A stretch of DNA of 58,097 nucleotides from Hoeflea sp. (lineage in GTDB: Bacteria; Pseudomonadota; Alphaproteobacteria; Rhizobiales; Rhizobiaceae): positions 1-58,097 of the forward strand of contig JAHRFE010000037.1 in NCBI GenBank assembly GCA_019084245.1, given 5' to 3'. Each line of letters starts with the position of its first letter. Position 1 is the first letter of the stretch. The position numbers and the translations under genes are program-made. Below the pieces are notes generated by a model, which was not told where the DNA came from, made no database searches, and worked only from the letters and a program-made list of their open reading frames with translations. This document shows positions 32,017-56,196 of the stretch, piece after piece.

Positions 32017-32074
32017 TGATATGTTCCTTTCGGCAGAATTCGTCTGGTTCCACGGTCATCAGTTCGCTTGCCCA

Positions 32075-32225
32075 TCAGACCACCTCAAACCAGGTGTTCA
32101 TTCCGGCTGCCGCATGTTCAAGCATGTGGCAATGGAACAGCCATTTGCCGGAACTGTCGGCCACGAAAGCGATCTCGGTCGTCTGGTCAGTGGTGGGCGA
32201 TTGCGCCTGCCCGTAGAATTTACGG
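32075..32225 (-). pseudogene. C-terminal remnant of a second multicopper oxidase
   Basis: About 48 codons read 'SPTTDQTTEIAFVADSSGKW', then 'LFHCHMLEHAAAGMNTWFEV' and a stop. That is the type 1 copper motif and natural C-terminus of a multicopper oxidase different from the intact neighbour (HCHMLEHAAAGM against HCHILEHEDAGM). Nothing of the rest of the gene is present upstream, where a 65-residue gene abuts it. It is a deletion scar. Confidence 0.75.
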
Positions 32226-32228
32226 CTT

Positions 32229-32426
32229 TCAAGAGTCGCGGGGCTCGATCAGATCGCGATAGGAATCGATCAGTGGACGGTTACTCACAGTAGACCTCGC
32301 ATACTCACCATCCATCTTTTCCAGTGCCGCGAGCATGAATTCGGCGATGTCAAGCCGATCTTGCCGGCAGGCATACCTGAACACGCGCAGGATATCCCGC
32401 TCCAGGATTTCGGTTTTCGAGATCAC
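32229..32426 (-). CDS. Small cytoplasmic protein, unknown (65 aa)
   Basis: 'ISKTEILERDILRVFRYACR' then 'QDRLDIAEFMLAALEKMDGE', helical and charged. Translation starts at a GTG (32426) preceded by AGGGAGG at ideal spacing, so the non-ATG start is well supported. No known domain. It directly follows ccdA in the transcript direction and precedes the oxidase remnant. Confidence 0.65.
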   Translation of the reverse strand: MISKTEILERDILRVFRYACRQDRLDIAEFMLAALEKMDGEYARSTVSNRPLIDSYRDLIEPRDS

Positions 32427-32507
32427 AGCTACCTCCCTATAAAAGTCAAGCCTGCGCCTTTCAGCGACAGGAATGTCAAATCACAATTTCCTCAACGGGC
32501 CGTTGGC

Positions 32508-33248
32508 CTAGCCGATTGTAGACAGCAACGGGAACGTCTCCAAAAGCCAGAAGGCGAAAGCGGACAGATATCCTGTCATCATGGCGACTCCCATCAAGAT
32601 CATAACCGCTCCGGCGAATGTCCGCAGAATACGCCCGAGGCGTCCGAAGGTCTTCAATCTTGCTGCCAAGGCGCCGGTGAAAACGGCGGCAAGCAGGAAC
32701 GGCACACCGAGGCCCAGCGAGTAGATCGCTAATAGTGCGACGCCGTCGGCGACCGAGGCTGATGCCGCGCCAACGGTCAAGATGGCACCGAGGATCGGAC
32801 CGATGCAGGGGGTCCAGCCGAAAGCGAATGCCAGGCCCAGCACATAGGACGATACGGCCTTGCCGCCGGGCAGATCAAGGTGAAACCGTGCCTCGCGCAT
32901 CATCCACGTGGGTCGAATGGTTCCGAGCATGAACAATCCGAACAACGTAACAATCCCGCCTCCGACGATGTTCATCTCGAAGCGGTAGCGAAGCAGCAAT
33001 TGCCCCAACGCTGTAGCGCTGGCACCAAGGATGACAAAGACGGTTGTGAAGCCGAGCACGAAGCAGAGGCTGAAACCGAGCGCTGCGCTTCGCGCAACAG
33101 AAACCTCACCTGAGGGTGATGTAATCGTCGACCGGCCGGCGACATAGGAAACATACCCCGGCACCAACGGCAGTACGCAAGGCGACAGGAATGAGACGAT
33201 ACCGGCAACGAAGGCGCTCAGGATACCAATATTGGAGAGTTCAGGCAT
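32508..33248 (-). CDS. ccdA: Cytochrome c biogenesis/thiol transporter CcdA
   Basis: A 246-residue, six-helix membrane protein that moves electrons from cytoplasmic thioredoxin to the periplasm. Both redox cysteines are in their conserved contexts: 'FLSPCVLPLVPGYVSYVAG' in helix 1 and 'FAFGWTPCIGPILGAI' in helix 4. It is intact, unlike the second copy at 42765-43505. Neighbours DsbA-like, SCO-like, TlpA and DsbE-like proteins are natural acceptors for its electrons. The stop is followed by the 65-residue gene, and the start lies 30 bases after the DsbA-like gene. Confidence 0.95.
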   Translation of the reverse strand: MPELSNIGILSAFVAGIVSFLSPCVLPLVPGYVSYVAGRSTITSPSGEVSVARSAALGFSLCFVLGFTTVFVILGASATALGQLLLRYRFEMNIVGGGIVTLFGLFMLGTIRPTWMMREARFHLDLPGGKAVSSYVLGLAFAFGWTPCIGPILGAILTVGAASASVADGVALLAIYSLGLGVPFLLAAVFTGALAARLKTFGRLGRILRTFAGAVMILMGVAMMTGYLSAFAFWLLETFPLLSTIG

Positions 33249-33278
33249 TCGGACGGCCCTTCAAGTCTTCTTCCGAGC

Positions 33279-34121
33279 TCACTGGTCACCGCTTTTCCGG
33301 GCACGCGCGATCAGCGTTTGCATGGTTTGCAGGTCGGTGGCGCCGCGCAATATTTCGTCACCGATAACAAAGCCCGGCGTGCCGTTGATCCGCAGAACTT
33401 GGGCGAGCGCGAGGTTGCGCGCGATTTCAGCGTCGACAGCAGGATCAGCCATATCGTTTCGCAGCCGCTCGACATCCAGGCCGATTTGCCCAGCAACCTC
33501 CATCACTCGCCCCTCGTCGGCAGCTCCTGACACCTGCATCATTGCTTTATGGAATTCGGGGTAGAGGTTCTGCTGGCGGGCCGCAAGAGCTGCCTTGGCT
33601 GCGAACACGGAATTTGGCCCGAGGATGGGAAACTCCTTGTAGACGATGCGTAGTTTCGGATCGTCTGCTTCCGCCGCCATCATCGTTGGCGCAACCTGGC
33701 GGCAGTAGGAACAATTGTAATCAAAGAATTCGACCAACGTCACATCGCCTTGCGGATTGCCACCGACTGGACTTTCCGGGCTGTTGAGCAGTTCATCACG
33801 ATGGGTGGCAAGGGCCGCCTGAGCTTCTGTCTGTTCCGCCTCCCGCTGCTTCCGTTCGAGGTTCTGCATGGCCTCGACGATGACCTCCGGATTGGCTACA
33901 AGATAGTCGCGCACCCGCCGCTCAAACGCGTCCTGCGGCAGGTTCTCCGATCCGATAGTAGGCTGCTGGCCGGTCCTGAACCCCGAATCGAGCAGATACC
34001 AGGCGCCTGCCGCAATGATCAGCAGCAGGGGCAGCATGAGAAAGCCGAAACGGCGCCCCGTGAATTTCGAAAATTGCGTCAACTTCCTTCTCCCGCTGTT
34101 TAGAACAGGCCTGTCAGCCAT
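33279..34121 (-). CDS. DsbA-family thiol-disulfide oxidoreductase, membrane anchored
   Basis: A 280-residue protein with an N-terminal membrane anchor ('FGFLMLPLLLIIAAGAWYLL'), an alpha-helical linker ('AMQNLERKQREAEQTEAQAA') and a DsbA/ScsC-like thioredoxin domain. The active site is 'FFDYNCSYCRQV' (CSYC), and the cis-Pro loop 'NGTPGFVIGDE' is present. The start at 34121 overlaps the SCO-like stop by 22 bases; the longer frame would run back through that gene. DsbA/ScsC proteins oxidise or isomerise periplasmic disulfides and, in copper islands, protect cysteine proteins from copper damage. Confidence 0.88.
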   Translation of the reverse strand: MADRPVLNSGRRKLTQFSKFTGRRFGFLMLPLLLIIAAGAWYLLDSGFRTGQQPTIGSENLPQDAFERRVRDYLVANPEVIVEAMQNLERKQREAEQTEAQAALATHRDELLNSPESPVGGNPQGDVTLVEFFDYNCSYCRQVAPTMMAAEADDPKLRIVYKEFPILGPNSVFAAKAALAARQQNLYPEFHKAMMQVSGAADEGRVMEVAGQIGLDVERLRNDMADPAVDAEIARNLALAQVLRINGTPGFVIGDEILRGATDLQTMQTLIARARKSGDQ

Positions 34122-34726
34122 CCCCACCACCCCTTTTCGGTAGGCGGCTTTGGCGCATGCGCGTTGTTGATGAGCTGGTTGATGTAGAGGGTCAGATTTG
34201 TCTTGCTGAAATCCGATCCATGGAAAATACCGGCATGCCGTCCGTTGCGGTCGATGACATGCGCCATCGGCAACTCCTGGTCGCGGCCGCTGAACGCCGC
34301 AAATCGATCCGCCACAGTGGCAGTTGTCTCGTCGTCCGATAGGATCATGAGCCGCCAGTTCGCCTGGTCCCACGGAGCCTTGATCGAGGCATCTGCGTCA
34401 AGAACGGTTACAAACGTGACCATTTGCTTCATCGGCGAAGCATTCACCTGTTCTTGCACGCCTGCGAGAACGGCTTGCTGTTTGGCGCATGGACTGTCAC
34501 AGTTCTGCGGAACAAAGCTCAGCACGATGATCTGATCATGGAGATCGCCGAGGCGCAGGACGTCACCGTCCGGTTCTTCGAGGCTGAGTTCGGGCGTGGA
34601 AGGGCTATCCGCGACCTCGAAGGCCGGTTCGCGATCGGTCATCACCTCATCGATGCGCTCACCGGGATGGTTTGCGAATGCCGGCTGTGCGACCAGCAGG
34701 GCGGCCAGGATCAGGAAGCGCTTCAT
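34100..34726 (-). CDS. SCO-like thioredoxin-fold protein
   Basis: A 208-residue exported protein with signal peptide 'MKRFLILAALLVAQPAFA'. It has a SCO/peroxiredoxin-like fold: 'DLHDQIIVLSFVPQNCDSPC' contains a Cx3C pair in a CDSPC context, and 'ELPMAHVIDRNGRHAGIFHG' gives the candidate His ligand. It is a divergent SCO relative. Canonical SCO proteins read 'CPDVCP', as at 35175-35813. A copper-delivery or thiol-reductase role is likely. The start overlaps the PCuAC stop by four bases. Confidence 0.78.
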   Translation of the reverse strand: MKRFLILAALLVAQPAFANHPGERIDEVMTDREPAFEVADSPSTPELSLEEPDGDVLRLGDLHDQIIVLSFVPQNCDSPCAKQQAVLAGVQEQVNASPMKQMVTFVTVLDADASIKAPWDQANWRLMILSDDETTATVADRFAAFSGRDQELPMAHVIDRNGRHAGIFHGSDFSKTNLTLYINQLINNAHAPKPPTEKGWWGWLTGLF

Positions 34727-35175
34727 TCAGAAACCTCCCTTGGCCCCTCGGCCGCTATTCCGAGCACGGAGACCTCAACGGTGATCTCTCCGGCGTTCTC
34801 GAAGCTGAGCGTCATAGGGAAAGTCGTGCCCTCGCTGAGTTTGTCTTGCAGTCCCATCAGCATCAGGTGCATGCCGCCGGGTGCGAGCGTGATCCGCTCG
34901 CCTGTCGGCACCTCAAGCGTTTCGATGTGCTTCATGCGGCTTACGTCGCCGTCCTTTTCGACTGCGTGAATCATGACGTGGCCGGCGACAGGCGTGGTCA
35001 CACCGAGGAGCCGATCCTCCACAGCACTCTCGATCGTGAGATAAGAGGCGACCGGCCGGGACGCGAGAACGGAGGCGCGCGCCCACGCATCGGAAACGCG
35101 GACGCTCTCCTCTGCGAGTGTCGGCGATGCGCCCGCCCAGAGCGCCACGACGATTGCAATCAGTATTTTCATCAT
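34723..35175 (-). CDS. PCuAC periplasmic copper chaperone
   Basis: A 150-residue exported protein of the PCuA(C) family. After a signal peptide it shows the copper-binding pattern H-x-M ... M ... H-x-M: 'GHVMIHAVEKDGDVSRMKH' and 'APGGMHLMLMGLQ'. These proteins bind Cu(I) and pass it, with SCO, to the CuA site of cytochrome oxidase. It is embedded between two SCO-family genes with four-base or one-base overlaps, which fits that partnership. A second PCuAC gene lies at 50136-50618, also between SCO genes. Confidence 0.92.
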   Translation of the reverse strand: MMKILIAIVVALWAGASPTLAEESVRVSDAWARASVLASRPVASYLTIESAVEDRLLGVTTPVAGHVMIHAVEKDGDVSRMKHIETLEVPTGERITLAPGGMHLMLMGLQDKLSEGTTFPMTLSFENAGEITVEVSVLGIAAEGPREVSE

Positions 35176-35813
35176 TATTTTCCATTCATTCTTGCAAGGA
35201 CATCGACGGCCATATCTTCCGCGGACTGGTCAGCTTCGCGGAAGACATCCTCAAAGCGGCCTTCGGGTGTCATCAGGTAGATGTGCCCTGAGTGTGCCAT
35301 CAGGTAACCGTCCGGAGCCGTTTCCTCTTCCATTCTCTCGTAGTAGACGCGGAAGGATTGGGCAGCTGCGGCAACCGCGGCTTCGGATCCGGTCAGTCCA
35401 ACCAGCTTCGGGTGGAAGGCCTGAACATATTCCGCCATCACCTCCGGCGTATCGCGCGACGGGTCGACGGTGATGAAGATCGGTGCAACCCGCTCGACCT
35501 CGCCGCCAAACCGATCCAGCACATTCGCCATGTAGGCGAGCGTGGTCGGGCAGACGTCGGGGCAATGGGTGAATCCGAAGAACACGAGTTGCCAGCGCCC
35601 GAGGAAGTCGGCCTCGGTCACGCGATTTCCGTTGTGGTCGATCAAAGAAAACTCGGAGCGAATTGCGGCTTCGCCGGTGGTGACCGACGGCGGCTCGCGG
35701 ACGCCGATCGTCCGGACGAAATAGGCACCACCGATCACCAACGCGGCAATGGTCACCAGGAACCACAGGCCGTAGCGAATTCGTCTGACATGTGTTGTTT
35801 TGCCTGATGTCAT
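35175..35813 (-). CDS. SCO1/SenC family copper chaperone
   Basis: A 212-residue membrane-anchored protein (helix 'YGLWFLVTIAALVIGGAYFV'). It carries the classical 'FGFTHCPDVCPTTLAYM' copper/thiol motif, 'ITVDPSRDTPEVM' and the distal His in 'LMAHSGHIYLM'. SCO proteins metallate or reduce the CuA centre of cytochrome oxidase. The ATG at 35813 is chosen because 'MTSGKTTHVRRIRYG' is a natural start before the anchor. The stop TAA overlaps the PCuAC start. Confidence 0.93.
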   Translation of the reverse strand: MTSGKTTHVRRIRYGLWFLVTIAALVIGGAYFVRTIGVREPPSVTTGEAAIRSEFSLIDHNGNRVTEADFLGRWQLVFFGFTHCPDVCPTTLAYMANVLDRFGGEVERVAPIFITVDPSRDTPEVMAEYVQAFHPKLVGLTGSEAAVAAAAQSFRVYYERMEEETAPDGYLMAHSGHIYLMTPEGRFEDVFREADQSAEDMAVDVLARMNGK

Positions 35814-35873
35814 GTCTGTTTCTCGCAGCCCCCCCGCCCTGACCAAATGTCCGGGCGGGGGGATCTCAGCCTC

Positions 35874-38920: not shown

Positions 38921-39859
38921 TTAATTGTTAGCGAGCGGGGTCCAGGACAGACCGCCGTCGCGAGTTTGGATGAGACCGTCCTCGGTGAGGGCAACGACTT
39001 GATCGGCATTGTTGGGATGGACGGCGACCGCATCAGTGCGGAAAGATGAGCGTTGCACCCAGACGACCCCCGCGTCCGCAGAAGCCCACACACCGGAAGG
39101 TAGGGCGGCATAGAGCCTCATCGGAACCGACGCTACGCTCACCAAAGCGTGGATAGGTTCTCCGGTGGGCAACGGTGCCTCCGGCGCAGGCGCTGCCCCG
39201 GATACCAATGCGTCCATCGCATCGCCTGGCTGCACGTCCTGCCAACGGCAGAAACAGTCGGGCACGCGGGTGAGACCCAATCCGGTTCCAGCGTATAACC
39301 AGATGCCGCCCATGCCCGTGGCCAGATCGACCGAGGCCAATGCAGTCAAGTCGCGTTCGGCATCTGCCAGCCAAGGCCGGTCCATCGCGAAGACCCAAGA
39401 TCGGCCAGCATCTTCGCTTTTCCATAGACCGTCACCATGAACGGAAACATACAGGGTTTCGGGGTTTGAAGAAGCCGCTGCGACAGCAACTACTGGAGCC
39501 TCGGGTAAACCCTGGCTTCTCGCCTCCCAGCTCTGCCCGCCGTCTTCGGATAGCGCAACGCCCCCATTAGACAGCCCCGCTACAATCCGACCGGCACGGT
39601 CGTTGTGCGTCGCAAGCGAAAGAATGCTGCCGCTTTTCGGACCGGGCAACGGTGTGGACACTCCGCCGTCGTCGCGGCGGATGAACCCGGCACCTCCAAC
39701 GATGAGCGCATTGCCATCGAAAGCGATTGCGGAAGGTGTTTTGCCCGGCGCGGCGCGAGCTGTCCGGTTTACCGAAACCGAGAGCACTGCACTGGCCCCG
39801 AAGGCCGCAGCGGACGTGAGAAAGGCTCGACGCGTCGGCGTCGGCAAAAGCAATGTCAT
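38921..39859 (-). CDS. Exported BNR-repeat beta-propeller protein
   Basis: A 312-residue protein with a Tat-type signal ('PTRRAFLTSAAAFGASAVLS'). It contains repeated Asp-box-like motifs 'SEDGGQSWEAR', 'SEDAGRSWVFA', 'SADAGVVWVQR' and 'TRDGGLSWTPL', which mark blades of a sialidase/VPS10-type propeller. Catalytic sialidase residues are not evident, so it is more likely a structural or redox-cluster accessory protein. It starts the overlapped minus-strand chain that runs to the multicopper oxidase. Confidence 0.82.
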   Translation of the reverse strand: MTLLLPTPTRRAFLTSAAAFGASAVLSVSVNRTARAAPGKTPSAIAFDGNALIVGGAGFIRRDDGGVSTPLPGPKSGSILSLATHNDRAGRIVAGLSNGGVALSEDGGQSWEARSQGLPEAPVVAVAAASSNPETLYVSVHGDGLWKSEDAGRSWVFAMDRPWLADAERDLTALASVDLATGMGGIWLYAGTGLGLTRVPDCFCRWQDVQPGDAMDALVSGAAPAPEAPLPTGEPIHALVSVASVPMRLYAALPSGVWASADAGVVWVQRSSFRTDAVAVHPNNADQVVALTEDGLIQTRDGGLSWTPLANN

Positions 39860-39992
39860 GATGTTCCAACTATCCTGAGGGGGTGCTCGATCCAGCAGTG
39901 CGCGAACCCGCGATGCTGAGTAGGACCATGAACGATCAGATTGATCGCGCATGAAGTCAGCCGCAGCTAGCCGGAACGGATTCCGGGCAGCG

Positions 39993-42764: not shown

Positions 42765-43505
42765 TCAGCCGATTCGGCCGAGGGCCGGGAACGTCCGGAG
42801 GAGCCAAATTACAAAGCTGGAGAGATGGCCGGTGATCATGGCAATAGCCATGACCACCTTCACCCCGCCAGCGACGATTTTGAGCACCCGACCAGTTCGG
42901 CGCATTGACAACAGCCGTGTCATGCATCCGCGCATGAACAGAACGGCCAGGATAAAGGGCAGGCCAAGGCCCAGCGAGCATACGGCCAACAGTGCCGTCC
43001 CGCTGCAACCGTGGCGTTGGCGGCGGATGGGGCCAGGATCGAGCCCAGCACAGGTCCGATGCATGGGGTCCAGCCGAACGCGAAAGCGAGACCGAAATAG
43101 GCAGACCAAGCGCCCGCCGCTGTTCGGACTGGAATGGAACCGAACGTCACGATCAAGCCAAGGCATCGGTACAAGGCCGGTTGTGAACAAGCCGAAGATG
43201 ACGACGATCACACCGCCGATCAGGTTTGCTTCGTAAAGATGCGTGCGCAGGAGTCCGCCCAACGCGGTCGCACTGGCCCCGAGCAAGACGAACACGGTCG
43301 AGAAGCCGACAACGAAGCAGAGGCTGAGGCCGCGGGGTCGGCTCGCCGCCTTCATCCCGGAATGGGCCGGAACCCCGTCAGCGCTGATCGTGCGCCCCGC
43401 GACATAGGATATATAGCCCGGTACTAGCGGCAGAACGCAGGGTGACAAAAGGGATATCACGCCTGCGGCGAAGGCTGTTGCTACTCCGATGCTGGAAATC
43501 TCCAT
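42765..43505 (-). pseudogene. ccdA: Second ccdA copy with a compensated frame shift
   Basis: The 246-codon frame starts and ends as a good CcdA ('LLSPCVLPLVPGYISYVAGR' with the helix 1 Cys, and 'LLAVCSLGLGLPFILAVLFM'). Between about 43130 and 42995 it reads nonsense such as 'RSRFRVRLDPMHRTCAGLDP'. The neighbouring frame over the same bases reads 'GLAFAFGWTPCIGPVLGSIL', which is the true helix 4 motif with the second redox Cys. Two opposite one-base indels therefore flank this stretch. The encoded protein would lack the essential FGWTPC motif, so it is probably inactive unless the indels are sequencing errors. Confidence 0.75.
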
Positions 43506-44588: not shown

Positions 44589-45482
44589 TCATGCCGGAGC
44601 GCTCCGCCGTGTCGACGAAGCTTCCCGCAAATCGCTGCGGGCGTCGCGGATGATTGACCAGGACGACTGCAGGAACAGGCCGGCGATCACGGCGGCGACG
44701 ACGAGGTCCGGCCAAGCCGTTCCGGTCCAAGCCACCAGGCCGGCCGCCACGACGACGGCTGCGTTTCCGATCGCGTCGTTGCGCGAAAACAGCCAGACCG
44801 CCCGCACATTCGCGTCGCCGGTTCGGTGGGACAGCAATGGAAGAACCGCAACGACATTGACGACGAGCGCGACCAGTGCGAACAGGCCCATCAGTTCGGC
44901 CTCGGGCTGCTGCTGCACCAGCACCCGATAGGCCGTGTTTACAAGGACCCCAAGTCCGAGCGCCCCAAGAAAAAGGCCTTGGATTAAGGCGGAACGGGCG
45001 CGCCAGACAAGGCTCCACCCGATGGCGAGGATGCCCAGAAAAGTAATGAGGCCATCGCCCAAGAAATCGAGTGCGTCGGCCTTTAGCGCCTGCGACCCAG
45101 AAATGAAGCCACCGAACATCTCGATGATTCCGTAGCCGACATTGAGCAGGACCACCATCCACAGCGCCCGTTTGTAGGCCGGTGTAATATGCGATAGGTC
45201 CTTGGCCAAATCGTCAATGTCGCCCTCGGAGTCGGTTTGGGGCTCATCTAGACGGTCAAGCCGGTAACCGATACCGCTGACGGCGCGTTCGACCTTCGGG
45301 AGGCAGGATACGGGGTCGCTTACGTGCAACGTCATGATCTGCGTAGCAGTCGAAACCTTTACCTCGTCCACTCCGACCGAGCGCACTGCCTTCTCGATCT
45401 TGGCCGCGCAGGAGGGGCAATCCATGCCGGTGACGCGGTAGCGCGCGGTCTCCGCATCGTTCGCTGATGCTGTTATTGTCAT
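44589..45482 (-). CDS. HMA domain-cation diffusion facilitator fusion
   Basis: A 297-residue protein. Residues 12-75 form a heavy-metal-associated domain with 'GMDCPSCAAKIEKAVRSVGV'. Residues 95-285 form a CDF-type transporter with six helices. The metal sites are non-standard: 'ALKADALDFLGDGL' in helix 2 and 'SRNDAIGNAAVVVAAG' in helix 5, with Asp/Asn in place of the more common His. Fusion of an HMA domain to a CDF exporter is uncommon; it could hand the metal directly to the pump. The divergent CmtR-like gene points to Cd(II) or Pb(II). The C-terminal cytoplasmic domain of CDF proteins is absent. Confidence 0.85.
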   Translation of the reverse strand: MTITASANDAETARYRVTGMDCPSCAAKIEKAVRSVGVDEVKVSTATQIMTLHVSDPVSCLPKVERAVSGIGYRLDRLDEPQTDSEGDIDDLAKDLSHITPAYKRALWMVVLLNVGYGIIEMFGGFISGSQALKADALDFLGDGLITFLGILAIGWSLVWRARSALIQGLFLGALGLGVLVNTAYRVLVQQQPEAELMGLFALVALVVNVVAVLPLLSHRTGDANVRAVWLFSRNDAIGNAAVVVAAGLVAWTGTAWPDLVVAAVIAGLFLQSSWSIIRDARSDLREASSTRRSAPA

Positions 45483-49530: not shown

Positions 49531-50139
49531 TCAGCTAGCCGCTTTCAACAACCTCTGGATCTTCAGCAGAGCCACATGCCGATCCTCGTGATAATCGATG
49601 ATCCCGCCAAATCGCCCGTCGGCCCGAAACAGGAACACGCCGGCGGTGTGGTCCATGGTATAGTCATCCTCCCTCGGCACCTTCTCGAATGTTGCGCGGA
49701 ATTCGTCCGCGGCGCGCTTGATCTCGGCAGGTGACCCCGTCAGACCGGTGATTCTTGGATCGAAGTTCGACAGGTAGTCGGCAAGAACCTGTGGAGTGTC
49801 GCGCTCCGGGTCGACACTGACCAGAAAGATATTCATCCGGTCGGCGTCAGGGCCGAGATCTTGCAGCCAGAGCGAAATATCGCTCAGCGTCGTCGGACAA
49901 ACATCGGGGCACCAGGTAAAGCCGAAAAAAACCATTGTCGGGCGGCCAATCCACTCTGATGGCGTCACCGTCACGCCACGGTGGTTCGTCAGGGTGAAGG
50001 ACATCTTGCCGATGGGCAATGGCAACAGAGCGGAGCCCGTTTGCAGGCTGTCCCGGCTCTGCCACCACCCCAGACCGAGCGTGAAGGCCAGTGCGCCAAC
50101 GCCCGACGCCCCGGCAACAAGTATCGTACGGCGTCTCAA
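49531..50139 (-). CDS. SCO1/SenC family protein
   Basis: A 202-residue exported or anchored protein ('MRRRTILVAGASGVGALAFT'). The copper/thiol motif 'FGFTWCPDVCPTTLSDISLW', 'VSVDPERDTPQVL' and the distal His in 'YTMDHTAGVFLF' are all present. It is the last gene of a tight SCO-PCuAC-SCO trio in which each start overlaps the previous stop by four bases. It presumably cooperates with PCuAC in copper transfer to a CuA-type site or in thiol reduction. Confidence 0.93.
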   Translation of the reverse strand: MRRRTILVAGASGVGALAFTLGLGWWQSRDSLQTGSALLPLPIGKMSFTLTNHRGVTVTPSEWIGRPTMVFFGFTWCPDVCPTTLSDISLWLQDLGPDADRMNIFLVSVDPERDTPQVLADYLSNFDPRITGLTGSPAEIKRAADEFRATFEKVPREDDYTMDHTAGVFLFRADGRFGGIIDYHEDRHVALLKIQRLLKAAS

Positions 50140-50618
50140 TCTTTTTTGTCCACGCAGCCTGCATCTTTCGCACCCATTCCCCGGATCGCCACGGGAACGG
50201 TCACGTCGCCTGCCTCGCGGAACGTCAGTGTAACCGGGAACGTCTCGCCTTCCTTCAGCACCTGTGTAAGACCCATCAGCATACCGTGATAGCCGCCTGG
50301 CTCCAATTGCACGGTGGAATCTGCTGGCACGGGGATCGCCGGCGCGTGCGGCATCGAAGCCACGCCATCCTTCACCACCGTTTCGTGCAGCATGGGCTTT
50401 CCGGACAGCGGCGTCGCGATGCCGGCAAGCGCATCGTCTGTCTCGCCAGTATTGCGGATGGTGACATAGAAGGCGCCGGGCCGGGCCATTCCGATCGAAG
50501 CCCGCGACCAGGCTTCCGAGATTTCGAGTGAGCCAAGTTGAACGGTTTCACACGCCGGCACCGGGGTGGCGGATAGGCTGAGAAGGAGAGCGGTCAGAAG
50601 ATATTTCATCGTATTCAC
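50136..50618 (-). CDS. PCuAC periplasmic copper chaperone
   Basis: A 160-residue exported protein, signal peptide 'MNTMKYLLTALLLSLSATPV'. The copper-binding Met/His motif is 'GKPMLHETVVKDGVASMPHA' plus 'EPGGYHGMLMGLTQ'. An extra Cys pair (one after the signal peptide, one near the C-terminal 'KDAGCVDKKD') is unusual and could form a disulfide. The ATG at 50618 overlaps the upstream SCO stop; the second ATG three codons in is also possible. Partners are the flanking SCO genes. Confidence 0.9.
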   Translation of the reverse strand: MNTMKYLLTALLLSLSATPVPACETVQLGSLEISEAWSRASIGMARPGAFYVTIRNTGETDDALAGIATPLSGKPMLHETVVKDGVASMPHAPAIPVPADSTVQLEPGGYHGMLMGLTQVLKEGETFPVTLTFREAGDVTVPVAIRGMGAKDAGCVDKKD

Positions 50619-51208
50619 AATCTTTGCTTGAGGTCGTTCATGATTTCACTTGCTGGCGTGCCATAGCTGAATTGGCGCAGCCAGTTTCCGTCAGGTCCGA
50701 TCAGGTAGAGTGATGCGCTGTGTGCCATTGTGTAACCATCCGGCGCGCCGGAACTGTCCTCGCGCTCATAGAAAATCCGGAAACTGCCGGCTGCCGCGCG
50801 GGTCTGCGCCTCGTCGCCGGCCAGACCGAGGATTGAGGGGTGAAAGGCCGCGGTATATTCAGCAAGTTCCAGGCCGCGGTCACGTGTCGGGTCGATGGAG
50901 ATGAAGAGGGGCTGTACCTTTCCTGCGTCATCTCCCAGACCCTCCATCACTTGCGCCACTTCGGCAAGCGTCGTCGGGCAGACGTCCGGGCAATTGGTGA
51001 AGCCGAAAAAGACCAGAAGATGCTTCCCCGCGAAGTCCGAGGGCATGCGCACTCTTCCCTCAGCATCAAGCAGGGAGAAGGTCGGCCGGAAAGACACTTC
51101 GGCCACCGGTGTTTCCGCGCGCTCATCAAGAAGATGCAACGCGCCGTAAGCCGGAATAGCAAGGGCCACCGCCGCCCAGAGCATCTTCTGCAGAACCTTC
51201 AATCGCAT
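50615..51208 (-). CDS. SCO1/SenC family protein
   Basis: A 197-residue anchored protein ('MLWAAVALAIPAYGALHLL'). It has 'FGFTNCPDVCPTTLAEVAQV', 'ISIDPTRDRGLELAEY' and 'YTMAHSASLYLIGPDGNWLR' with the His ligand. It begins the SCO-PCuAC-SCO trio. The PhnE-type permease gene ends 144 bases upstream on the same strand, so the trio could share the long transcript that starts at the dihaem gene, or have its own promoter in that gap. Confidence 0.93.
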   Translation of the reverse strand: MRLKVLQKMLWAAVALAIPAYGALHLLDERAETPVAEVSFRPTFSLLDAEGRVRMPSDFAGKHLLVFFGFTNCPDVCPTTLAEVAQVMEGLGDDAGKVQPLFISIDPTRDRGLELAEYTAAFHPSILGLAGDEAQTRAAAGSFRIFYEREDSSGAPDGYTMAHSASLYLIGPDGNWLRQFSYGTPASEIMNDLKQRL

Positions 51209-51352: not shown

Positions 51353-52114
51353 TCATGAAAAGCGGCGACGCAATGCAACATTGAACGCCTCGATAGCAAG
51401 AACCATGGCGATGACCGCCAGCGTGACACTGGCAGCCTTTTCGTATTGAAATGAGCGAACATAGGACTGAATGTAGAAGGCGATGCCACCGGCTCCGACG
51501 ATGCCGAGGATAAGCGATTCTCGTAGGTTCAGCTCGAAACGAAAGATTGTATCACGGGCGATCACCGGAGCCATTTGCGGCCAGATTGCATAGCGTAGGC
51601 GTGCAAGCGGCCCGGCGCCCGCGCTTTCCAGTGCGGCGATCGGTCCGCGGGCAACCCCATCAATTGCTTCAGCATAGAACTTCGCCAGCATGCCCGTTGC
51701 ATGGATGGCAACCGCGATGATACCCGGAAGCGGGCCGAGGCCCACTGCGCCAACCATCAACATGGCGACGAGAATCAGCGGAATGGCGCGAATCAGCGCG
51801 AGAGCTGTCCGCACCGGACGGTAAACGACGGGCGGGGCCATGGTTTCCGATGCAAAGACGCCGAGCGGCCCCGACAGGAGCACAGCGCCGAGTGTTCCGA
51901 GGATGGCGATGCGCAGCGTCTCGGCGCTGCCTTTGATGATCTCGGTCATCACTGACGGATCCGGCGGAAACATCCGCGCAAGGAAATCACCGATGCGCGG
52001 CCCGGCGGAGAAGAGGCGGGAAAGTTCCACGTCGGTCGTCGCGAGCGACCAGAGCACGGCCCCGGCGACGAGCCCGCCTGTCGCGAAGCCGCCCCAACCC
52101 CGGCTTTCCATCAC
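51353..52114 (-). CDS. phnE: PhnE-type ABC transporter permease
   Basis: A 253-residue inner-membrane permease with about six helices. 'LFSAGPRIGDFLARMFPPD' near the N-terminus, 'ALIRAIPLILVAMLMVGAVG' and the EAA loop 'EAIDGVARGPIAALESAGAG' match the phosphonate/phosphite permease family (PhnE/PtxC). The start overlaps the ATPase stop by four bases. No phosphonate-degrading genes (phnG-M, phnX) are nearby, so the substrate may not be a phosphonate. Confidence 0.85.
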   Translation of the reverse strand: MMESRGWGGFATGGLVAGAVLWSLATTDVELSRLFSAGPRIGDFLARMFPPDPSVMTEIIKGSAETLRIAILGTLGAVLLSGPLGVFASETMAPPVVYRPVRTALALIRAIPLILVAMLMVGAVGLGPLPGIIAVAIHATGMLAKFYAEAIDGVARGPIAALESAGAGPLARLRYAIWPQMAPVIARDTIFRFELNLRESLILGIVGAGGIAFYIQSYVRSFQYEKAASVTLAVIAMVLAIEAFNVALRRRFS

Positions 52115-52893
52115 GGCACCGCCTTCAGGCGGGGCTGTACGGTAGCATTCGCATCGTCATAGACCCGGGCTGTCGCGTCCTCGGTGAGCTCTGCCGTCGG
52201 AATGTCGAAAACGATCCGACCGTTGCGCATGCCTACGATTCTCCGCGCGAAGCGCCGCGCAAGGTCGGGCTGGTGAGAGGAGAAGACTGTCGTCGCGCCT
52301 CGTTGACGCGCGGCTTCGGTTAGAAGCGAAAGGATCTCGGCTGCGCGTGCGGGGTCGAGGTTGCTCACCGGTTCGTCGGCAAGGATTAGGCGCGGCTCCT
52401 GCGAGAGGCAGCGTGCGATTGCGACGCGCTGCCGTTGTCCGCCGCTGAGACTGTCCACCCGTCGCTCAGCCAGGTCGACAATGCCGCAATCGGCCAGCGC
52501 CGAGCGCGCAACCGCAAGATCGTCTTTCGACGGCCGCCCGAGCAGGGCACGCAGCGGCCTAATGCGGCCCAGCCTGCCGTTCAGCACGTTGCGCAGCACG
52601 CTGGCGCGTTCGACAAGAGCGAAGTCCTGAAAGATGAACCCTGTATCGGCCCGGCGCGCGCGCGGCGGCGCACGGTCCGGATCGAGCGCGTCGCCCAGCA
52701 CCGAGACGCGGCCGCGCCAAGCCCTCAGGCGACCATCGAGCAGCGTCAGGAGCGTCGTCTTGCCCGCCCCCGAAGGCCCGATCAGCGCGAGCGCTTCGCC
52801 CGGCGGGATAGACAGCGTCACCTGATCCAGCGTCGGCAGGCCCGAGGCGACATGGGAGAAACATAGCTCCTCGATGCGGACGGCCTCGGTCAT
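52111..52893 (-). CDS. phnC: PhnC-type ABC transporter ATP-binding protein
   Basis: A 260-residue ABC ATPase: Walker A '[17 protein letters not shown]', Q-loop '[20 protein letters not shown]', signature '[15 protein letters not shown]', Walker B '[14 protein letters not shown]', H-loop '[14 protein letters not shown]'. '[17 protein letters not shown]' is the hallmark of the PhnC subfamily. It overlaps both neighbours by four bases. With PhnE- and PhnD-type genes it makes a complete importer. Confidence 0.92.
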
Positions 52894-53765
52894 TGCAGAA
52901 GTCCGTAGCGACGGGCGAGTGCCCGAACACCGTCGAAAGTGGTCGCATCGGCCGGGACATAGCCGTCCGGGCCGTAGAGATGCCGCAACATGGCGCGATG
53001 TTCGAGCTCGTTCAGCCGCAGCATGGCGTTCACGAAGTTTTCCTGCATTTCGGCGTCCAGTCCGGGGCGGGCAATCACCAGGTGGCTAGGGATCGGCTCG
53101 CTCTCGGCGATCCAAGTGACTTGGGACTGTTGGCCTGGCGCGAGCAGGAGATCGGCATACTGGCTGGCACCCGCGGCATCGACCAGACCCTCTGCCATTG
53201 CCTGCATCGCCTGCTGATATCCGCCCGCGAAGAACACCCGGCCGAAGAAGGCTTCCGACTCTGCGGGTCCCGCGATCAGGCCCGCGCGCTCGAATTCGGC
53301 CAGCGGGTAGAGATAGCCTGACTCCGAAATCGGATCGGCGAAGGCGATATCGCGTCCCCGCAAATCAGCAAGCGTGGTGATGCCGCTGTCGCGTCGCACG
53401 AAGACCCGTCCGGTGTAGGTGGGGGCGTCGCGATAGACCTCGGATAAGAGCGGCACCGCACCGATTTGCGCCTCGGCCAGAACAAAGGGCAGCGCTCCCA
53501 TGAAGGAGATGTCCGCATCGCCGTTGCGCAGCGCCTCGACGGCGGCGGCGTGATCGATGGTCACGAAACCTTCGACCGGCACGCCGATCTCCCGTGACAG
53601 CCAACCGGTGATGGCCTCGATGTCGCCCAGTAGCTTTTCAGGGTTCTCCTGCGGAATAAAGGCCAACCGCAACGGGGCAGACTGCGCGCGAACCGGTGCC
53701 GCGAGGGCGGCGAGACTTGCACAGCACAACGCCAGAATATGACGGCGGGAGAGCATGGAGTTCAT
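52890..53765 (-). CDS. phnD: PhnD-type periplasmic substrate-binding protein
   Basis: A 291-residue exported protein. The signal 'MNSMLSRRHILALCCASLAA' contains RR and may use Tat. The mature part has the phosphate/phosphite/phosphonate-binding pattern: 'LRLAFIPQENPEKLLGDIEA', 'IDHAAAVEALRNGDADISFM' and 'DLRGRDIAFADPISESGYLY'. The family often has 'S-T-S' ligand contacts after 'ADP'; here it is 'ADPISESG'. I chose the ATG at 53765, which overlaps the dihaem-protein stop (TGATG). Linkage to MntR and a dihaem enzyme suggests a metal-related ligand, which is inference. Confidence 0.88.
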   Translation of the reverse strand: MNSMLSRRHILALCCASLAALAAPVRAQSAPLRLAFIPQENPEKLLGDIEAITGWLSREIGVPVEGFVTIDHAAAVEALRNGDADISFMGALPFVLAEAQIGAVPLLSEVYRDAPTYTGRVFVRRDSGITTLADLRGRDIAFADPISESGYLYPLAEFERAGLIAGPAESEAFFGRVFFAGGYQQAMQAMAEGLVDAAGASQYADLLLAPGQQSQVTWIAESEPIPSHLVIARPGLDAEMQENFVNAMLRLNELEHRAMLRHLYGPDGYVPADATTFDGVRALARRYGLLQ

Positions 53766-55657
53766 CAGAACGCCCTTTCTTCGATGGCTTGCGCCTCGGA
53801 CTGAAATGCGACCCAGCTTGCCTCTGCGGCGTCCCAATCGTCGGCGCGGACTGCTGCGCCAACGGCAGCCAGACGTTCTGCGAGGGAGTAGATCTCCGGG
53901 CGGGCTACAAGGTTCGCCATGGTGCCAGCATCCGCTGCGAGATCGGCGGCGACGGTATCAGTCAGGAGCAGGATGTGCTGAGCGTCCCGGCGCGGCAGAA
54001 GGGTATCGAGGGTGGAGGCAAAGGTTGTCAGCTCCGCAAAAGCCAACCGGAATGGCGTATTCTCAGTGTCGAAGTCCTCATAAGGTTCATCCGCCGCGCC
54101 AACGATCTCAAGGTAAGCGGTGAGATCGGCGCGCTCGGACTCGCTGAGGCCAAGGCTCTTGGTCGTGTCGAACCAGTTGACAACGGCGGCCAGCGTCGGC
54201 ATCGAGCCGTCGTGGAAATAGGGCGCGGTATAGACGGTCCCGAGCAGGGTCGGCGTGTCCAGCGCCCCGCCGCGCGACCCTTCATAGGCCGGCGTGACCG
54301 ATCCAATGTCATGTGCCTGCCGGTCCAGGAAATTGCCATCTGGCACATGACAACTGGCGCATGATTTGCCGTTCAGCCCGTCAAAAGGCTGATTGAAGAT
54401 CGCCGCGCCGCGCTGTGCCGCCTCAGGCGCGGCCTCGGTCAGACGACCATCGCCGGTTAGCATCGCGTTCGGCAGAAAGTCGAACTCGGTCATGTACGCG
54501 ACGAGGGCGTCCAGCATGAAGGGCGTCGGCTCGGCCCCAGCGAATTCGTTGACGATCACGTTGCGGGTGAAATCGCGAATGCTGGCAAACCGGCCGTCAC
54601 GGCCATAAGGACCCGTAAACCGCAGGCCGCGCAGGCTGGGAATGTCGATCGGGTCGGCGCGGCGGTCGTTGAACATCGGATTGAAGAAGGCACCGTCCAC
54701 ATCCACTGCTCCGGGTTGATGGCTGGCACCGGGAATGAAGAAACGCTGGTTGATATCCGAACGGTTGTGGCAGGTCGAGCAGGCGATGCCAATTTCACGC
54801 GCCGGGCCGCCGAATATCTCGGGGCTGTCGAAGAGCATGTCGCCATAGGCGATGAGCGGCAGGTCGGTCTCATCTATGCCTTGCTCCTCGAAACCCAGTA
54901 CAAGCAGGGGCAACGGATCCTGATCGAAGATGTCAGAGCCCGGAGGCAGCGTCGCGGGAAGCGTCACCGTACGGCCGCTGAGGGCGATGGTTTCCGGCAC
55001 GGCGGTGAGGGCTGTGCGCGGCGCGAAATCGGCGACGCGGTAGTTGGCGGCAAGATAGTCGGAAACAACCACCCGCGCTGTCGCCATTGCGTTGAGATCG
55101 GGTTCGGTCGCGCCAGCACCCAGCACCCCGGTGGAGCCGGTGGCACTGGACAGTTCCAGCCAGGCCCGTCCGAGCGCGCGGGCCGCTTCAGGGTCGGCGG
55201 CGGCGAGATGATCCTCGATTGCGCGATAAAGTTCCCGGGCCGTGCGTACCGCTTGCTGTGCTGCAGCGGGGCTCTCGGCCGCCAACGCCGCGTCAAGCTC
55301 TTCGTCGATGCGGGCGGAGACAAGACGCGTCGCGGCCCCGAAAACCGCTGCCCGATCTTCGCGCGCGATGGCAGCTGTCAGCGGCTCGGTCGGTAGGGAG
55401 CTTTGGCCCGCGAGCCAATCGAGCGCACCTTGCGTGTATTCCGATCCGCGATAGGGCTCCTCCCAGGCGCGCCCCAATTCATCCCAAGGTACGGGAGTAA
55501 GATTGCCCAGAAACAGGGTCAGCCGGTATGCGGCAGCCTCGGGTAGCCAAGGGGTATCTCTGGCTGGGGTCGCCATGGCCGGCCCGGCGAGCAGACCAGT
55601 TCCTAGCCCAAAGCCGAAGACGAAAGCTAGTAATTTGATACGCACACGCGCCTCCAT
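53765..55657 (-). CDS. Large dihaem cytochrome c peroxidase/MauG-like protein
   Basis: A 630-residue exported protein. The signal peptide runs to about residue 30 ('LLAGPAMA'). Residues 35-220 form a helical domain with no clear relative, somewhat like imelysin/EfeO-type domains. Residues 250-530 form a dihaem peroxidase with haem motifs CSTCH (293-297) and CASCH (433-437) and 'FHDGSMPTLAAVVNWF'. Residues 535-630 are a further helical tail. Classical enzymes of this family are about 350 residues. The ATG at 55657 lacks a good ribosome site; a GTG at 55645 preceded by GGAGG is an alternative. It is the first gene of the MntR-linked operon. Confidence 0.88.
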   Translation of the reverse strand: MEARVRIKLLAFVFGFGLGTGLLAGPAMATPARDTPWLPEAAAYRLTLFLGNLTPVPWDELGRAWEEPYRGSEYTQGALDWLAGQSSLPTEPLTAAIAREDRAAVFGAATRLVSARIDEELDAALAAESPAAAQQAVRTARELYRAIEDHLAAADPEAARALGRAWLELSSATGSTGVLGAGATEPDLNAMATARVVVSDYLAANYRVADFAPRTALTAVPETIALSGRTVTLPATLPPGSDIFDQDPLPLLVLGFEEQGIDETDLPLIAYGDMLFDSPEIFGGPAREIGIACSTCHNRSDINQRFFIPGASHQPGAVDVDGAFFNPMFNDRRADPIDIPSLRGLRFTGPYGRDGRFASIRDFTRNVIVNEFAGAEPTPFMLDALVAYMTEFDFLPNAMLTGDGRLTEAAPEAAQRGAAIFNQPFDGLNGKSCASCHVPDGNFLDRQAHDIGSVTPAYEGSRGGALDTPTLLGTVYTAPYFHDGSMPTLAAVVNWFDTTKSLGLSESERADLTAYLEIVGAADEPYEDFDTENTPFRLAFAELTTFASTLDTLLPRRDAQHILLLTDTVAADLAADAGTMANLVARPEIYSLAERLAAVGAAVRADDWDAAEASWVAFQSEAQAIEERAF

Positions 55658-55665
55658 CCCGATTC

Positions 55666-55709
55666 TTAGCTAAGGCTAACTTATACATCCTTGACCAACA
55701 TATTGTCAA
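55666..55709 (-). promoter_or_regulatory. Promoter and DtxR/MntR-like box of the dihaem-ABC operon
   Basis: On the minus strand TTGACA (55704-55709), an 18-base spacer and TATAAG (55680-55685) form a good sigma-70 promoter pointing to the dihaem gene. Just downstream lies TTAGC-TAAG-GCTAA (55666-55679). In the plus direction the 19 bases from 55666 agree at about 15 positions with the DtxR/IdeR consensus TTAGGTTAGSCTAACCTAA. The box covers the expected transcription start, so a bound regulator would repress. A further repeat TTGAC...GTCAA (55691-55709) overlaps the -35. Confidence 0.7.
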
Positions 55710-55737
55710 TCGGGCAGCGATCCGGCATTGTCCTCTG

Positions 55738-56196
55738 ATGACTGACCAAACTTCACAGGCTAGCGACGATCTCGCGCCGGACAGCCGCGCCCCCGAAGCA
55801 CAAGCCAACGGGTTCGCGACCGTACGCGAGGCGCGTCGCAACGAATTGGCCGAAGATTATGTCGAACTGATCGCCGACCTAATCCACCAGTATGGCGAGG
55901 CACGTCCGGTCGATATCGCCGAGCGGTTTGGCGTTCGCGCGCCGACCGTGACCAAAACGCTGAACCGCTTGGCGCGCGAAGGCCTGATCACCCGCGAGAA
56001 GTACCGTTCAGTGTTCCTGACGGAAGCAGGTCGGACGCTGGCACAGGAATGCCGCCGTCGCCACGAAATCGTACTGCGGTTCCTGATCCGTCTCGGACTT
56101 GACCCCGAAACGGCGGAGCGTGATGCCGAGGGGATTGAACATCATGTCAGCGAGCAGACACTCGCCCTGTTCGAATCCTATGCCAATCGGCCCTAG
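55738..56196 (+). CDS. mntR: MntR, DtxR-family manganese-responsive regulator
   Basis: A 152-residue regulator. A winged HTH ('YGEARPVDIAERFGVRAPTV', 'TKTLNRLAREGLITREKYRS') is followed by the metal-binding dimerisation domain. The MntR ligand set can be read: Asp and Glu in 'LAEDYVELIADLI', His in 'RRRHEIVLRFL', and Glu/Glu/His in 'DAEGIEHHVSEQTL'. An Asp in place of the DtxR Met at the first site favours Mn over Fe. The N-terminal 30 residues are an extra polar tail. It is divergent from the dihaem-ABC operon, with a DtxR-like box between them. Confidence 0.92.
   Translation: MTDQTSQASDDLAPDSRAPEAQANGFATVREARRNELAEDYVELIADLIHQYGEARPVDIAERFGVRAPTVTKTLNRLAREGLITREKYRSVFLTEAGRTLAQECRRRHEIVLRFLIRLGLDPETAERDAEGIEHHVSEQTLALFESYANRP

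What the first reader, a model, noticed from the sequence alone, without database searches (positions are those of the whole stretch)
53765..56196. MntR-linked operon joining a large dihaem peroxidase to a Phn-type ABC importer
A divergent mntR faces a five-base-overlapped run of dihaem protein, PhnD-, PhnC- and PhnE-type genes. Between them lie a sigma-70 promoter (TTGACA, 18 bases, TATAAG) and a DtxR/IdeR-like box over the expected start site. PhnCDE importers are normally controlled by phosphate (PhoB). No phosphonate-catabolic gene is present. Metal control plus a periplasmic haem redox enzyme suggests an importer for a metal complex or a metal-limited nutrient in which the dihaem protein changes redox state before uptake, loosely like EfeO/EfeB but with other parts. 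I do not know of a described system with this composition.
Basis: partly seen in the sequence, partly recalled or inferred. Interest (0 to 1): 0.75.

Follow-up and report, generated by a model that had tools for sequence, protein, structure and literature searches.

The report
Manganese-switched metal importer with dihaem peroxidase
A mobile bacterial operon, apparently switched on when manganese runs short, pairs a two-haem enzyme with an ABC importer whose "phosphonate-binding" protein has swapped its phosphate pocket for a set of likely metal-holding residues, which suggests a new kind of manganese or iron uptake system.

Summary
A divergent mntR faces dihaem–PhnD–PhnC–PhnE genes, with TTGACA-18-TATAAG and the palindrome TTAGCTAAGGCTAA over the expected start site. 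The linkage is strongly conserved: MntR is divergent in 79 of the 80 related genomic loci kept, and the box lies at the promoter in 78 of those 79, against 2 in 1.36 Mb of flanks. In 248 genomes of one family the same 13 carry the dihaem gene and this PhnD type, adjacent, with MntR and box in 13 of 13.

The new point is the PhnD-type protein. Its phosphite/phosphonate-binding residues are replaced by His72, Ser-Glu148-Ser, Tyr183 and His228, invariant in 32 of 32 aligned members. None of these four was found in rows from 38 other PhnD-family loci. Tyr117, Tyr183 and His228 align, partly in a forced alignment, with three of the four iron ligands of transferrin. One outlying operon has a Fur-family regulator instead of MntR.

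Best reading: a Mn-repressed importer binding a metal ion directly, Mn most likely, Fe next, with a dihaem enzyme acting on metal or binding protein. The metal and the enzyme's reaction could not be tested. My searches of the held library found no such system.

The parts
55738..56196 (+). mntR: DtxR-family, E. coli-type manganese regulator, divergent
   Evidence: NF008273 205.9 vs cut-off 153; E. coli MntR 2h09 145 bits and gap-free alignment to B. subtilis MntR 1on1 giving D40/E43/H109/E131/E134/H135; these six invariant in 6 of 6
55666..55679 (.). MntR-type box TTAGCTAAGGCTAA over the expected start site of the operon
   Evidence: TTAGN6CTAA in 78 of 79 MntR-bearing loci and 2 in 1.36 Mb background; 13 of 13; like the palindrome upstream of E. 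coli mntH
55680..55685 (-). -10 element TATAAG
   Evidence: read directly; position next to the box kept in relatives; not listed by the consensus scan
55704..55709 (-). -35 element TTGACA, 18 bases from the -10
   Evidence: read directly; TTGAC starts 30 bases before the box in 49 of 54 distinct contexts
53765..55657 (-). dihaem peroxidase-like protein, 630 aa: signal peptide, N-terminal helical domain (about 39-227), dihaem core (about 228-530), C-terminal helical domain (about 535-630); start probably GTG at 55645
   Evidence: CCP_MauG 37.4 vs 25.6; helical elements from the model, reliable only in the N-terminal and part of the C-terminal domain; 35-row alignment
54767..54781 (-). haem-binding motif CSTCH (C293-H297)
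   Evidence: invariant C293, C296, H297 in 35 of 35; two CXXCH in 78 of 78
54347..54361 (-). haem-binding motif CASCH (C433-H437)
   Evidence: invariant C433, C436, H437 in 35 of 35
52890..53765 (-). PhnD/PtxB-family substrate-binding protein with metal-type pocket H72, M89, Y117, S147-E148-S149, Y183, H228; signal peptide with R7R8
   Evidence: PF12974 190 bits; pocket mapped through Te_PtxB; invariance; control
52111..52893 (-). PhnC-type ATPase
   Evidence: ABC_tran; TIGR02315 225.3, below its cut-off 266.1
51353..52114 (-). PhnE-type permease
   Evidence: TIGR01097 231.1 vs 216.7
49531..51208 (-). neighbouring SCO (51208-50615), PCu(A)C (50618-50136) and SCO (50139-49531) copper-chaperone genes; 144 bp after phnE, not part of the conserved core
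   Evidence: Pfam; SCO homologues in 47 and PCuAC in 27 of 64 loci over 15 kb, at variable places and mostly on the other side of mntR

Best explanation
It is a metal-ion uptake operon repressed by manganese. When the cell has enough Mn, MntR with Mn bound sits on the box over the transcription start and blocks the promoter; when Mn is short (or, I infer, displaced during heavy-metal stress) the operon is read. The PhnD-type protein binds a metal ion directly in the cleft where its relatives hold phosphite or phosphonate, using His72, Tyr117, Glu148, Tyr183 and His228 with Met89 close by, and hands it to PhnE/PhnC. Mn is the most likely metal and Fe the next. The dihaem enzyme acts in the periplasm, most likely using peroxide to oxidise the metal (Mn(II) to Mn(III), or Fe(II) to Fe(III)) so that the Tyr-rich cleft can hold it, or less likely modifying the binding protein. 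Shown: linkage, box, motif loss and the new invariant residues. Inferred: Mn control, direct metal binding, which metal, and the enzyme's reaction.
For: Linkage: MntR divergent in 79 of 80 loci; PhnD downstream in 77 of 80, the other three contigs ending within 671 bases of the match. 13 of 248 genomes hold the PhnD type, the same 13 hold the full dihaem protein, adjacent, with MntR, box and identical pocket in 13 of 13. Plasmids: 39 of the 40 listed dihaem records are among the 42 listed PhnD records of 71% identity or more; the next listed PhnD hit is 32.7%. Box: 78 of 79 vs 2 in 1.36 Mb. MntR: the six residues aligned to B. subtilis D8/E11/H77/E99/E102/H103 (that these are the Mn ligands is recalled). 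Regulator swap: L132 has the same operon and pocket but a Fur-family regulator with AATGATTATCATT in between. Pocket: Te_PtxB Y55, T131, H160, Y208 (PMC5700983, passages) map to H72, E148, Y183, H228, invariant in 32 of 32; in 75 members, many near-identical, 73 have the full pattern, one has M89I, one lacks only the N-terminal arginines. Control: 39 rows from 38 other loci, none with His72 or Glu148 (39 rows reach), Tyr183 (31 reach) or His228 (30 reach). Transferrin: profile alignment pairs Y117-Y95, Y183-Y188, H228-H249 (score 33.5 vs at most 19.4 in 60 column shuffles).
Against: No binding, expression or structure data exist; the model's coordinates could not be read, so the pocket geometry was not measured. 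Only one of the five models of the binding protein reached pLDDT 85.7; the others gave 57-82. The confident part of the transferrin alignment covers residues 75-141 (probability 33 percent); the Y183 and H228 pairs come from the forced full-length version, and global mode failed. I had noticed the pairs by eye from recalled motifs before running it. Transferrin's Asp63 aligns with Met89; its anion-binding Arg124 is not conserved (Ser by eye). An ordinary PhnD profile aligns to transferrin better overall (P 1.6e-5) than this family does (4.6e-4), so the match is local and shows no special kinship. No member hits Pfam Transferrin. Copper chaperones are frequent neighbours, and Met plus two His would also suit copper. 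The enzyme's distal haem ligands and substrate are unknown; its core was modelled badly (pLDDT mostly under 50). Two outlying operons (L132, L035) lack an adjacent MntR.
Confidence: 0.58

Rival explanations
1. A ferric-iron importer: the dihaem enzyme oxidises Fe(II), the transferrin-like Tyr/Tyr/His/Glu cleft holds Fe(III), and MntR control reflects the exchange of Mn and Fe under oxidative stress.
For: Three of four transferrin iron ligands align, two of them only in the forced alignment; L132's regulator is of the Fur family and its upstream region holds AATGATTATCATT; a related dihaem core follows an overlapping EfeM/EfeO-type gene in Bradyrhizobium sp. 186.
Against: 79 of 80 loci have MntR, whose residue at B. 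subtilis position 8 is Asp as in Mn-type MntR rather than the Met of DtxR/IdeR (the meaning of that residue is recalled). L132's regulator passes no NCBIfam Fur cut-off, and its best PDB match 5fd5/5fd6 is, as I recall, the rhizobial Mn regulator Mur, though the listing calls it ferric uptake regulation protein.
Confidence: 0.2
2. A copper importer or copper-loading system in which the dihaem enzyme works like MbnH on MbnP or CorB on MopE/CorA (recalled systems) and the PhnD-type protein carries copper to SCO/PCu(A)C chaperones.
For: SCO homologues nearby in 47 of 64 loci, PCuAC in 27 of 64; weak MbnH-family similarity (TIGR04039 38.3 bits); His, His and Met in the pocket.
Against: The regulator next to the operon is MntR; TIGR04039 cut-off 362.85 is far from met; SCO and PCuAC sit at variable places and sides among other metal-resistance genes; Tyr and Glu are poor Cu(I) ligands (established knowledge).
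Confidence: 0.1
3. An importer for a metal complex (metallophore, citrate or similar), the dihaem enzyme changing the redox state of the complex: the first reader's version.
For: Metal control and a redox partner; PhnD-family proteins normally bind small molecules.
Against: Four positions that contact or cap the ligand in PtxB became His, Glu, Tyr and His together and do not vary in the members aligned, which suits a bare ion; no outer-membrane receptor or metallophore gene is annotated in the four plasmid neighbourhoods read; the 80 genomic loci were not searched for such genes.
Confidence: 0.1
4. An oxyanion importer (phosphite, phosphonate, arsenate or similar) that merely happens to be under metal control on a metal-resistance plasmid.
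For: Fold and family (PF12974, PhnE equivalog); ArrX and PtxB are the closest structures.
Against: Ser-Thr-Ser/His motif lost and an acidic residue placed in the anion loop in each of the 32 aligned members.
Confidence: 0.06

Closest known systems
PhnCDE / PtxABC (phosphonate and phosphite ABC importers)
   Different: Ligand residues Y55/T131/H160/Y208 of Te_PtxB replaced by H72/E148/Y183/H228; MntR control; dihaem partner; no phosphonate catabolic gene annotated in the neighbourhoods
Transferrin N-lobe
   Different: Asp63 to Met89; no Pfam Transferrin hit; ordinary PhnD proteins score closer overall
EfeUOB and FtrABCD (oxidation-coupled iron importers; recalled)
   Same: Would share the logic of a periplasmic oxidising partner plus an importer
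   Different: The operon's four genes are a dihaem enzyme and an ABC importer, not an FTR1-type permease, M75 EfeO or DyP EfeB
MauG / MbnH / BthA dihaem enzymes (PF03150)
   Same: Two CXXCH, the PYFHDGS..TL motif, CCP_MauG domain
   Different: Extra N- and C-terminal helical domains; far below MauG and MbnH cut-offs
MntR-controlled Mn importers MntH and SitABCD/MntABC (control recalled)
   Same: MntR and the MntR-type palindrome at the promoter
   Different: PhnD-fold binding protein instead of Nramp or a ZnuA-type cluster; extra haem enzyme

Membership tests
PhnCDE/PtxABC phosphonate-phosphite importers | PF12974 substrate-binding protein with PhnC and PhnE | tested here: met
   (PhnC below its equivalog cut-off)
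PhnCDE/PtxABC phosphonate-phosphite importers | PhnD equivalog cut-off TIGR03431 | tested here: not met
   151.2 vs 261.1; 172.8 in L132
PhnCDE/PtxABC phosphonate-phosphite importers | Ser-Thr-Ser and His oxygen-binding motif (PMC5700983) | tested here: not met
   Ser-Glu-Ser and Tyr in 32 of 32
PhnCDE/PtxABC phosphonate-phosphite importers | linked phosphonate or phosphite catabolic genes | tested here: inconclusive
   none among annotated neighbours; the rest of the window and genome not scanned for them
MntR (proteobacterial) | NF008273 cut-off | tested here: met
   205.9 vs 153
MntR (proteobacterial) | Mn-ligand residues | tested here: met
   gap-free alignment to 1on1; invariant in 6 of 6; role of residues recalled
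MntR (proteobacterial) | Mn-dependent binding to the box | not testable with these tools
   needs a binding assay
Dihaem peroxidase superfamily (CCP_MauG) | PF03150 and two CXXCH | tested here: met
   37.4 vs 25.6; 78 of 78
MbnH | TIGR04039 cut-off | tested here: not met
   38.3 vs 362.85
MauG | TIGR03791 cut-off | tested here: not met
   35.1 vs 443.85
EfeUOB | EfeO/EfeM M75 domain in the operon | tested here: not met
   no PF09375 hit in the operon's proteins; hhalign probability 0.1 to 0.4 percent for the three parts of the dihaem protein against a 25-row M75 alignment that EfeM itself matches at 100 percent
EfeUOB | fold relation of the extra helical domains to EfeO | tested here: inconclusive
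   EfeO and imelysin appear only at E 2.4-3.0
Transferrin | Fe ligands Asp, Tyr, Tyr, His | tested here: not met
   Tyr, Tyr, His align, Asp aligns with Met89
Transferrin | Pfam Transferrin match | tested here: not met
   0 of 32 at E up to 10, HMMER filters on
Transferrin-type metal binding (works like) | binds Fe(III) or Mn(III) | not testable with these tools
   needs purified protein

The most novel reading that the evidence does not exclude
A peroxidase-coupled manganese importer. The dihaem enzyme uses peroxide to oxidise scarce Mn(II) to Mn(III), and a PhnD-fold protein that has independently acquired a transferrin-like Tyr/Tyr/His/Glu cleft captures Mn(III) for an ABC importer, all repressed by Mn-MntR and carried on mobile metal-resistance replicons. 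It would be a manganese counterpart of oxidation-coupled iron uptake and a bacterial parallel to the transferrin site.
Probability: 0.22. Interest if true: 0.92.

Novelty: new variant of a known kind. Interest (0 to 1): 0.74.

Why it matters
In the annotated plasmid records that I read this gene set is called a phosphonate-type transporter plus a cytochrome c peroxidase; relatives occur in dozens of mostly marine alphaproteobacterial genomes and 43 plasmid records. If the reading is right, these annotations mislead and a class of Mn or Fe importer has been overlooked. It would show that the phosphonate-binding fold can be turned into a transferrin-like metal carrier by a handful of pocket changes, and would give a first substrate to a group of unassigned dihaem enzymes. 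Each of these is testable with one purified protein and one mutant.

Tried and rejected

Special kinship with transferrin: rejected as a family claim because an ordinary PhnD profile aligns better overall, Pfam Transferrin is not hit, and neither the profile at E up to 10 nor a 36-residue peptide found transferrin by sequence. Only the ligand correspondence is kept.

A genome-wide MntR regulon: TTAGCN4GCTAA occurs 6 times in the own genome against 9 for the reversed control. Of the 5 other sites, 4 came with loci; I looked at their ORFs only, without a family search, and saw no metal gene. So the regulator looks local to this operon.

Copper operon: SCO/PCuAC genes are near but not in a fixed place.

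Core-only relatives in 385 alphaproteobacterial genomes: 26 genomes with E up to 1e-20, only 2 with a full-length match. I fetched larger flanks of 20 places and ran Pfam on one flanking gene in each of seven core-only loci (MAPEG, IF-2B, polysaccharide deacetylase, PmbA/TldD, M20 peptidase, carbamoyltransferase, SBP_bac_3), which gave no lead.

Does the host lack other Mn uptake? No Nramp and two ZnuA-type binding proteins, one His-rich, one closest to AztC/Mn types but below the cut-offs listed: undecided.

Literature: no paper describing this composition turned up in the held library, by the searches. I saw passages of PMC5700983 and PMC6405878, and only listings otherwise. The 2006 comparative study of alphaproteobacterial Mn/Fe regulons, known to me by recall, is not held.


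Full report
1. What is there. Searches confirm a divergent mntR (55738-56196, +) and a - strand run of dihaem protein (55657-53765), PhnD (53765-52890), PhnC (52893-52111) and PhnE (52114-51353). The joints overlap by 1, 4 and 4 bases. After phnE a 144-base gap leads to SCO, PCu(A)C and SCO genes. Read directly, the operon promoter is TTGACA, 18 bases, TATAAG, followed without a gap by the palindrome TTAGCCTTAGCTAA, which covers the expected start site. The window is a whole 58,097-base contig of its assembly.

2. Is it conserved? One scan of 84,980 species genomes found 122 loci encoding a relative of the dihaem protein; the best 80 were kept and the other 42 not seen. In these 80, a divergent MntR lies in front of the dihaem gene in 79. 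PhnD follows in 77, PhnC in 76 and PhnE in 72; each missing gene belongs to a contig that ends within 1.6 kb of the dihaem match, so none is a proven absence. In a draw of 248 genomes of one family, 13 hold this PhnD type and the same 13 hold the full dihaem protein, side by side. The flanks show MntR divergent, D-C-E in order, the box, and an identical pocket in 13 of 13. In wider draws the PhnD type is rare: 2 of 398 genomes of the phylum at E up to 1e-50, and 2 of 385 of the class above 150 bits, the next match having 132; those two are also the only ones of the 385 with a full-length dihaem match. In the plasmid collection, 43 records hold at least 80% of the dihaem protein and 43 hold PhnD at 60% identity or more. 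Of the 40 dihaem records listed, 39 are among the 42 PhnD records listed; after those, listed PhnD identity drops to 32.7%. The element is accessory: 2 of 17 congeners carry it.

3. The box. TTAGN6CTAA was found in the promoter stretch of 78 of the 79 MntR-bearing loci, which give 54 distinct 60-base contexts. L116 has one mismatch. The same pattern occurs twice in 1,361,778 bases of the rest of those loci. TTGAC starts 30 bases before the box in 49 of the 54 contexts, so the layout of -35, -10 and box is nearly fixed. In a 7-kb stretch of E. coli K-12 two TAGCN4GCTA sites occur: TAGCCTTTGCTA, starting 18 bases upstream of mntH and inside the small ORF ypeD, and one inside mntH. That the first is the MntR box of mntH is recalled. 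The window's MntR aligns without gaps to E. coli MntR (2h09, 145 bits) and B. subtilis MntR (1on1), placing D40, E43, H109, E131, E134 and H135 on D8, E11, H77, E99, E102 and H103. These are recalled to be the Mn ligands.

4. A change of regulator. L132 (a MAG named Proteobacteria bacterium; dihaem 58%, PhnD 66%) has no MntR. Instead a Fur-family gene stands divergently, and the spacer holds AATGATTATCATT. It scores 93 bits on a Fur model with cut-off 200, so its subfamily is open. Its best PDB match is 5fd5/5fd6, listed as ferric uptake regulation protein, which I recall to be the rhizobial Mn regulator Mur. Two unrelated metal-regulator families beside one operon argue for a metal role, though the second rests on one MAG.

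5. The binding protein. Bisson and co-workers (author name recalled; PMC5700983, passages seen) list the phosphite contacts of Te_PtxB as Y55, Y100, S130, T131, S132 and H160, with capping Y208 and D22. The printed alignment to 5jvb (that 5jvb is PtxB of Trichodesmium is in its title) maps these to H72, Y117, S147, E148, S149, Y183, H228 and Q39. H72, M89, Y117, S147, E148, S149, Y183 and H228 are invariant in 32 of 32 aligned members. Of 75 members including the window, many near-identical, 73 show the complete pattern, one has M89I and one lacks only the N-terminal arginines. As a control, I aligned 39 rows from 38 other PF12974 loci, at least four genes being there twice and several rows partial. 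Position 72 is Tyr or Asn and position 148 Thr, Asn or, once, Phe (39 rows). Position 183 is His in 24, Glu in 6 and Ala in 1 of the 31 rows that reach it; the six Glu are E. coli-type PhnD, where I suspect a one-residue shift. Position 228 is never His in the 30 rows that reach it. Met89 occurs in one divergent row. The family has therefore lost the anion motif as a unit and gained two His, one Glu and one Tyr in its place. R7R8 of the signal peptide, followed by a hydrophobic stretch, looks like a Tat signal, but only 1 of 32 members hits Pfam TAT_signal.

7. The dihaem protein. Both CXXCH motifs are present in 78 of 78 members kept. The core resembles MauG, MbnH, BthA and hydrazine synthase gamma weakly. 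It carries N- and C-terminal helical domains with no assigned family. The core was not modelled reliably. What it oxidises is unknown. The suggestion that it oxidises Mn(II) or Fe(II) rests on linkage, on the Tyr-rich cleft and on the chemistry of the superfamily; a maturation role on the binding protein, as MbnH has on MbnP (recalled), is possible.

8. Setting. Loci over 15 kb (up to 9 kb on each side) hold P-type ATPase homologues in 53 of 64 (query L002) or 54 of 64 (query L007), DUF411 in 48, SCO in 47, lspA in 45, M23 in 43, ZIP in 39, lnt in 37 and PCuAC in 27 (tblastn, E up to 1e-15, so broad families are counted generously). The operon thus tends to travel with metal-resistance genes. 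A plausible use, inferred, is to keep Mn supplied when other metals compete.

9. Verdict. Observation confirmed with small corrections. Filed as a new variant of a known kind (ABC metal importer), with an unusual binding protein and an enzyme partner.

Noticed in passing
L132:4664-5092 and upstream of L132:5287: The same operon in a MAG with a divergent Fur-family regulator and a Fur-box-like palindrome instead of MntR and its box.
   Followed up: yes
L007:6376-7207 (Dinoroseobacter shibae pDSHI03); hits H94-H100: Seven listed roseobacter plasmid records match only 60 residues of the dihaem protein. In the one read (L007), mntR and the box are kept, the dihaem frame is cut to 276 bases and a convergent P-type ATPase follows: a remnant of the operon.
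   Followed up: partly
L006:7168-9326 (Bradyrhizobium sp. 186 plasmid): An EfeM/EfeO-type lipoprotein gene overlaps a dihaem gene whose core is 44% identical to this one.
   Followed up: partly
window 44589-45482: Cation diffusion facilitator with an N-terminal heavy-metal-associated (HMA) domain.
   Followed up: no
window 42765-43505: A CcdA/DsbD-like reading frame whose middle part, by eye, departs from the related protein at 32508-33248, as if shifted out of frame and back.
   Followed up: no
window 30508-35846: A second copper/redox cluster: multicopper oxidase, CcdA-like, thioredoxin-like, PCu(A)C and SCO genes, with a DsbA-like frame by eye.
   Followed up: no
window 38921-39952: A 343-residue protein with a weak Sortilin-Vps10 match (below cut-off), ending where a DUF411 gene starts.
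   Followed up: no
own genome G000: No Nramp (MntH) homologue and two ZnuA-type binding proteins, one His-rich, one between AztC and Mn types.
   Followed up: partly
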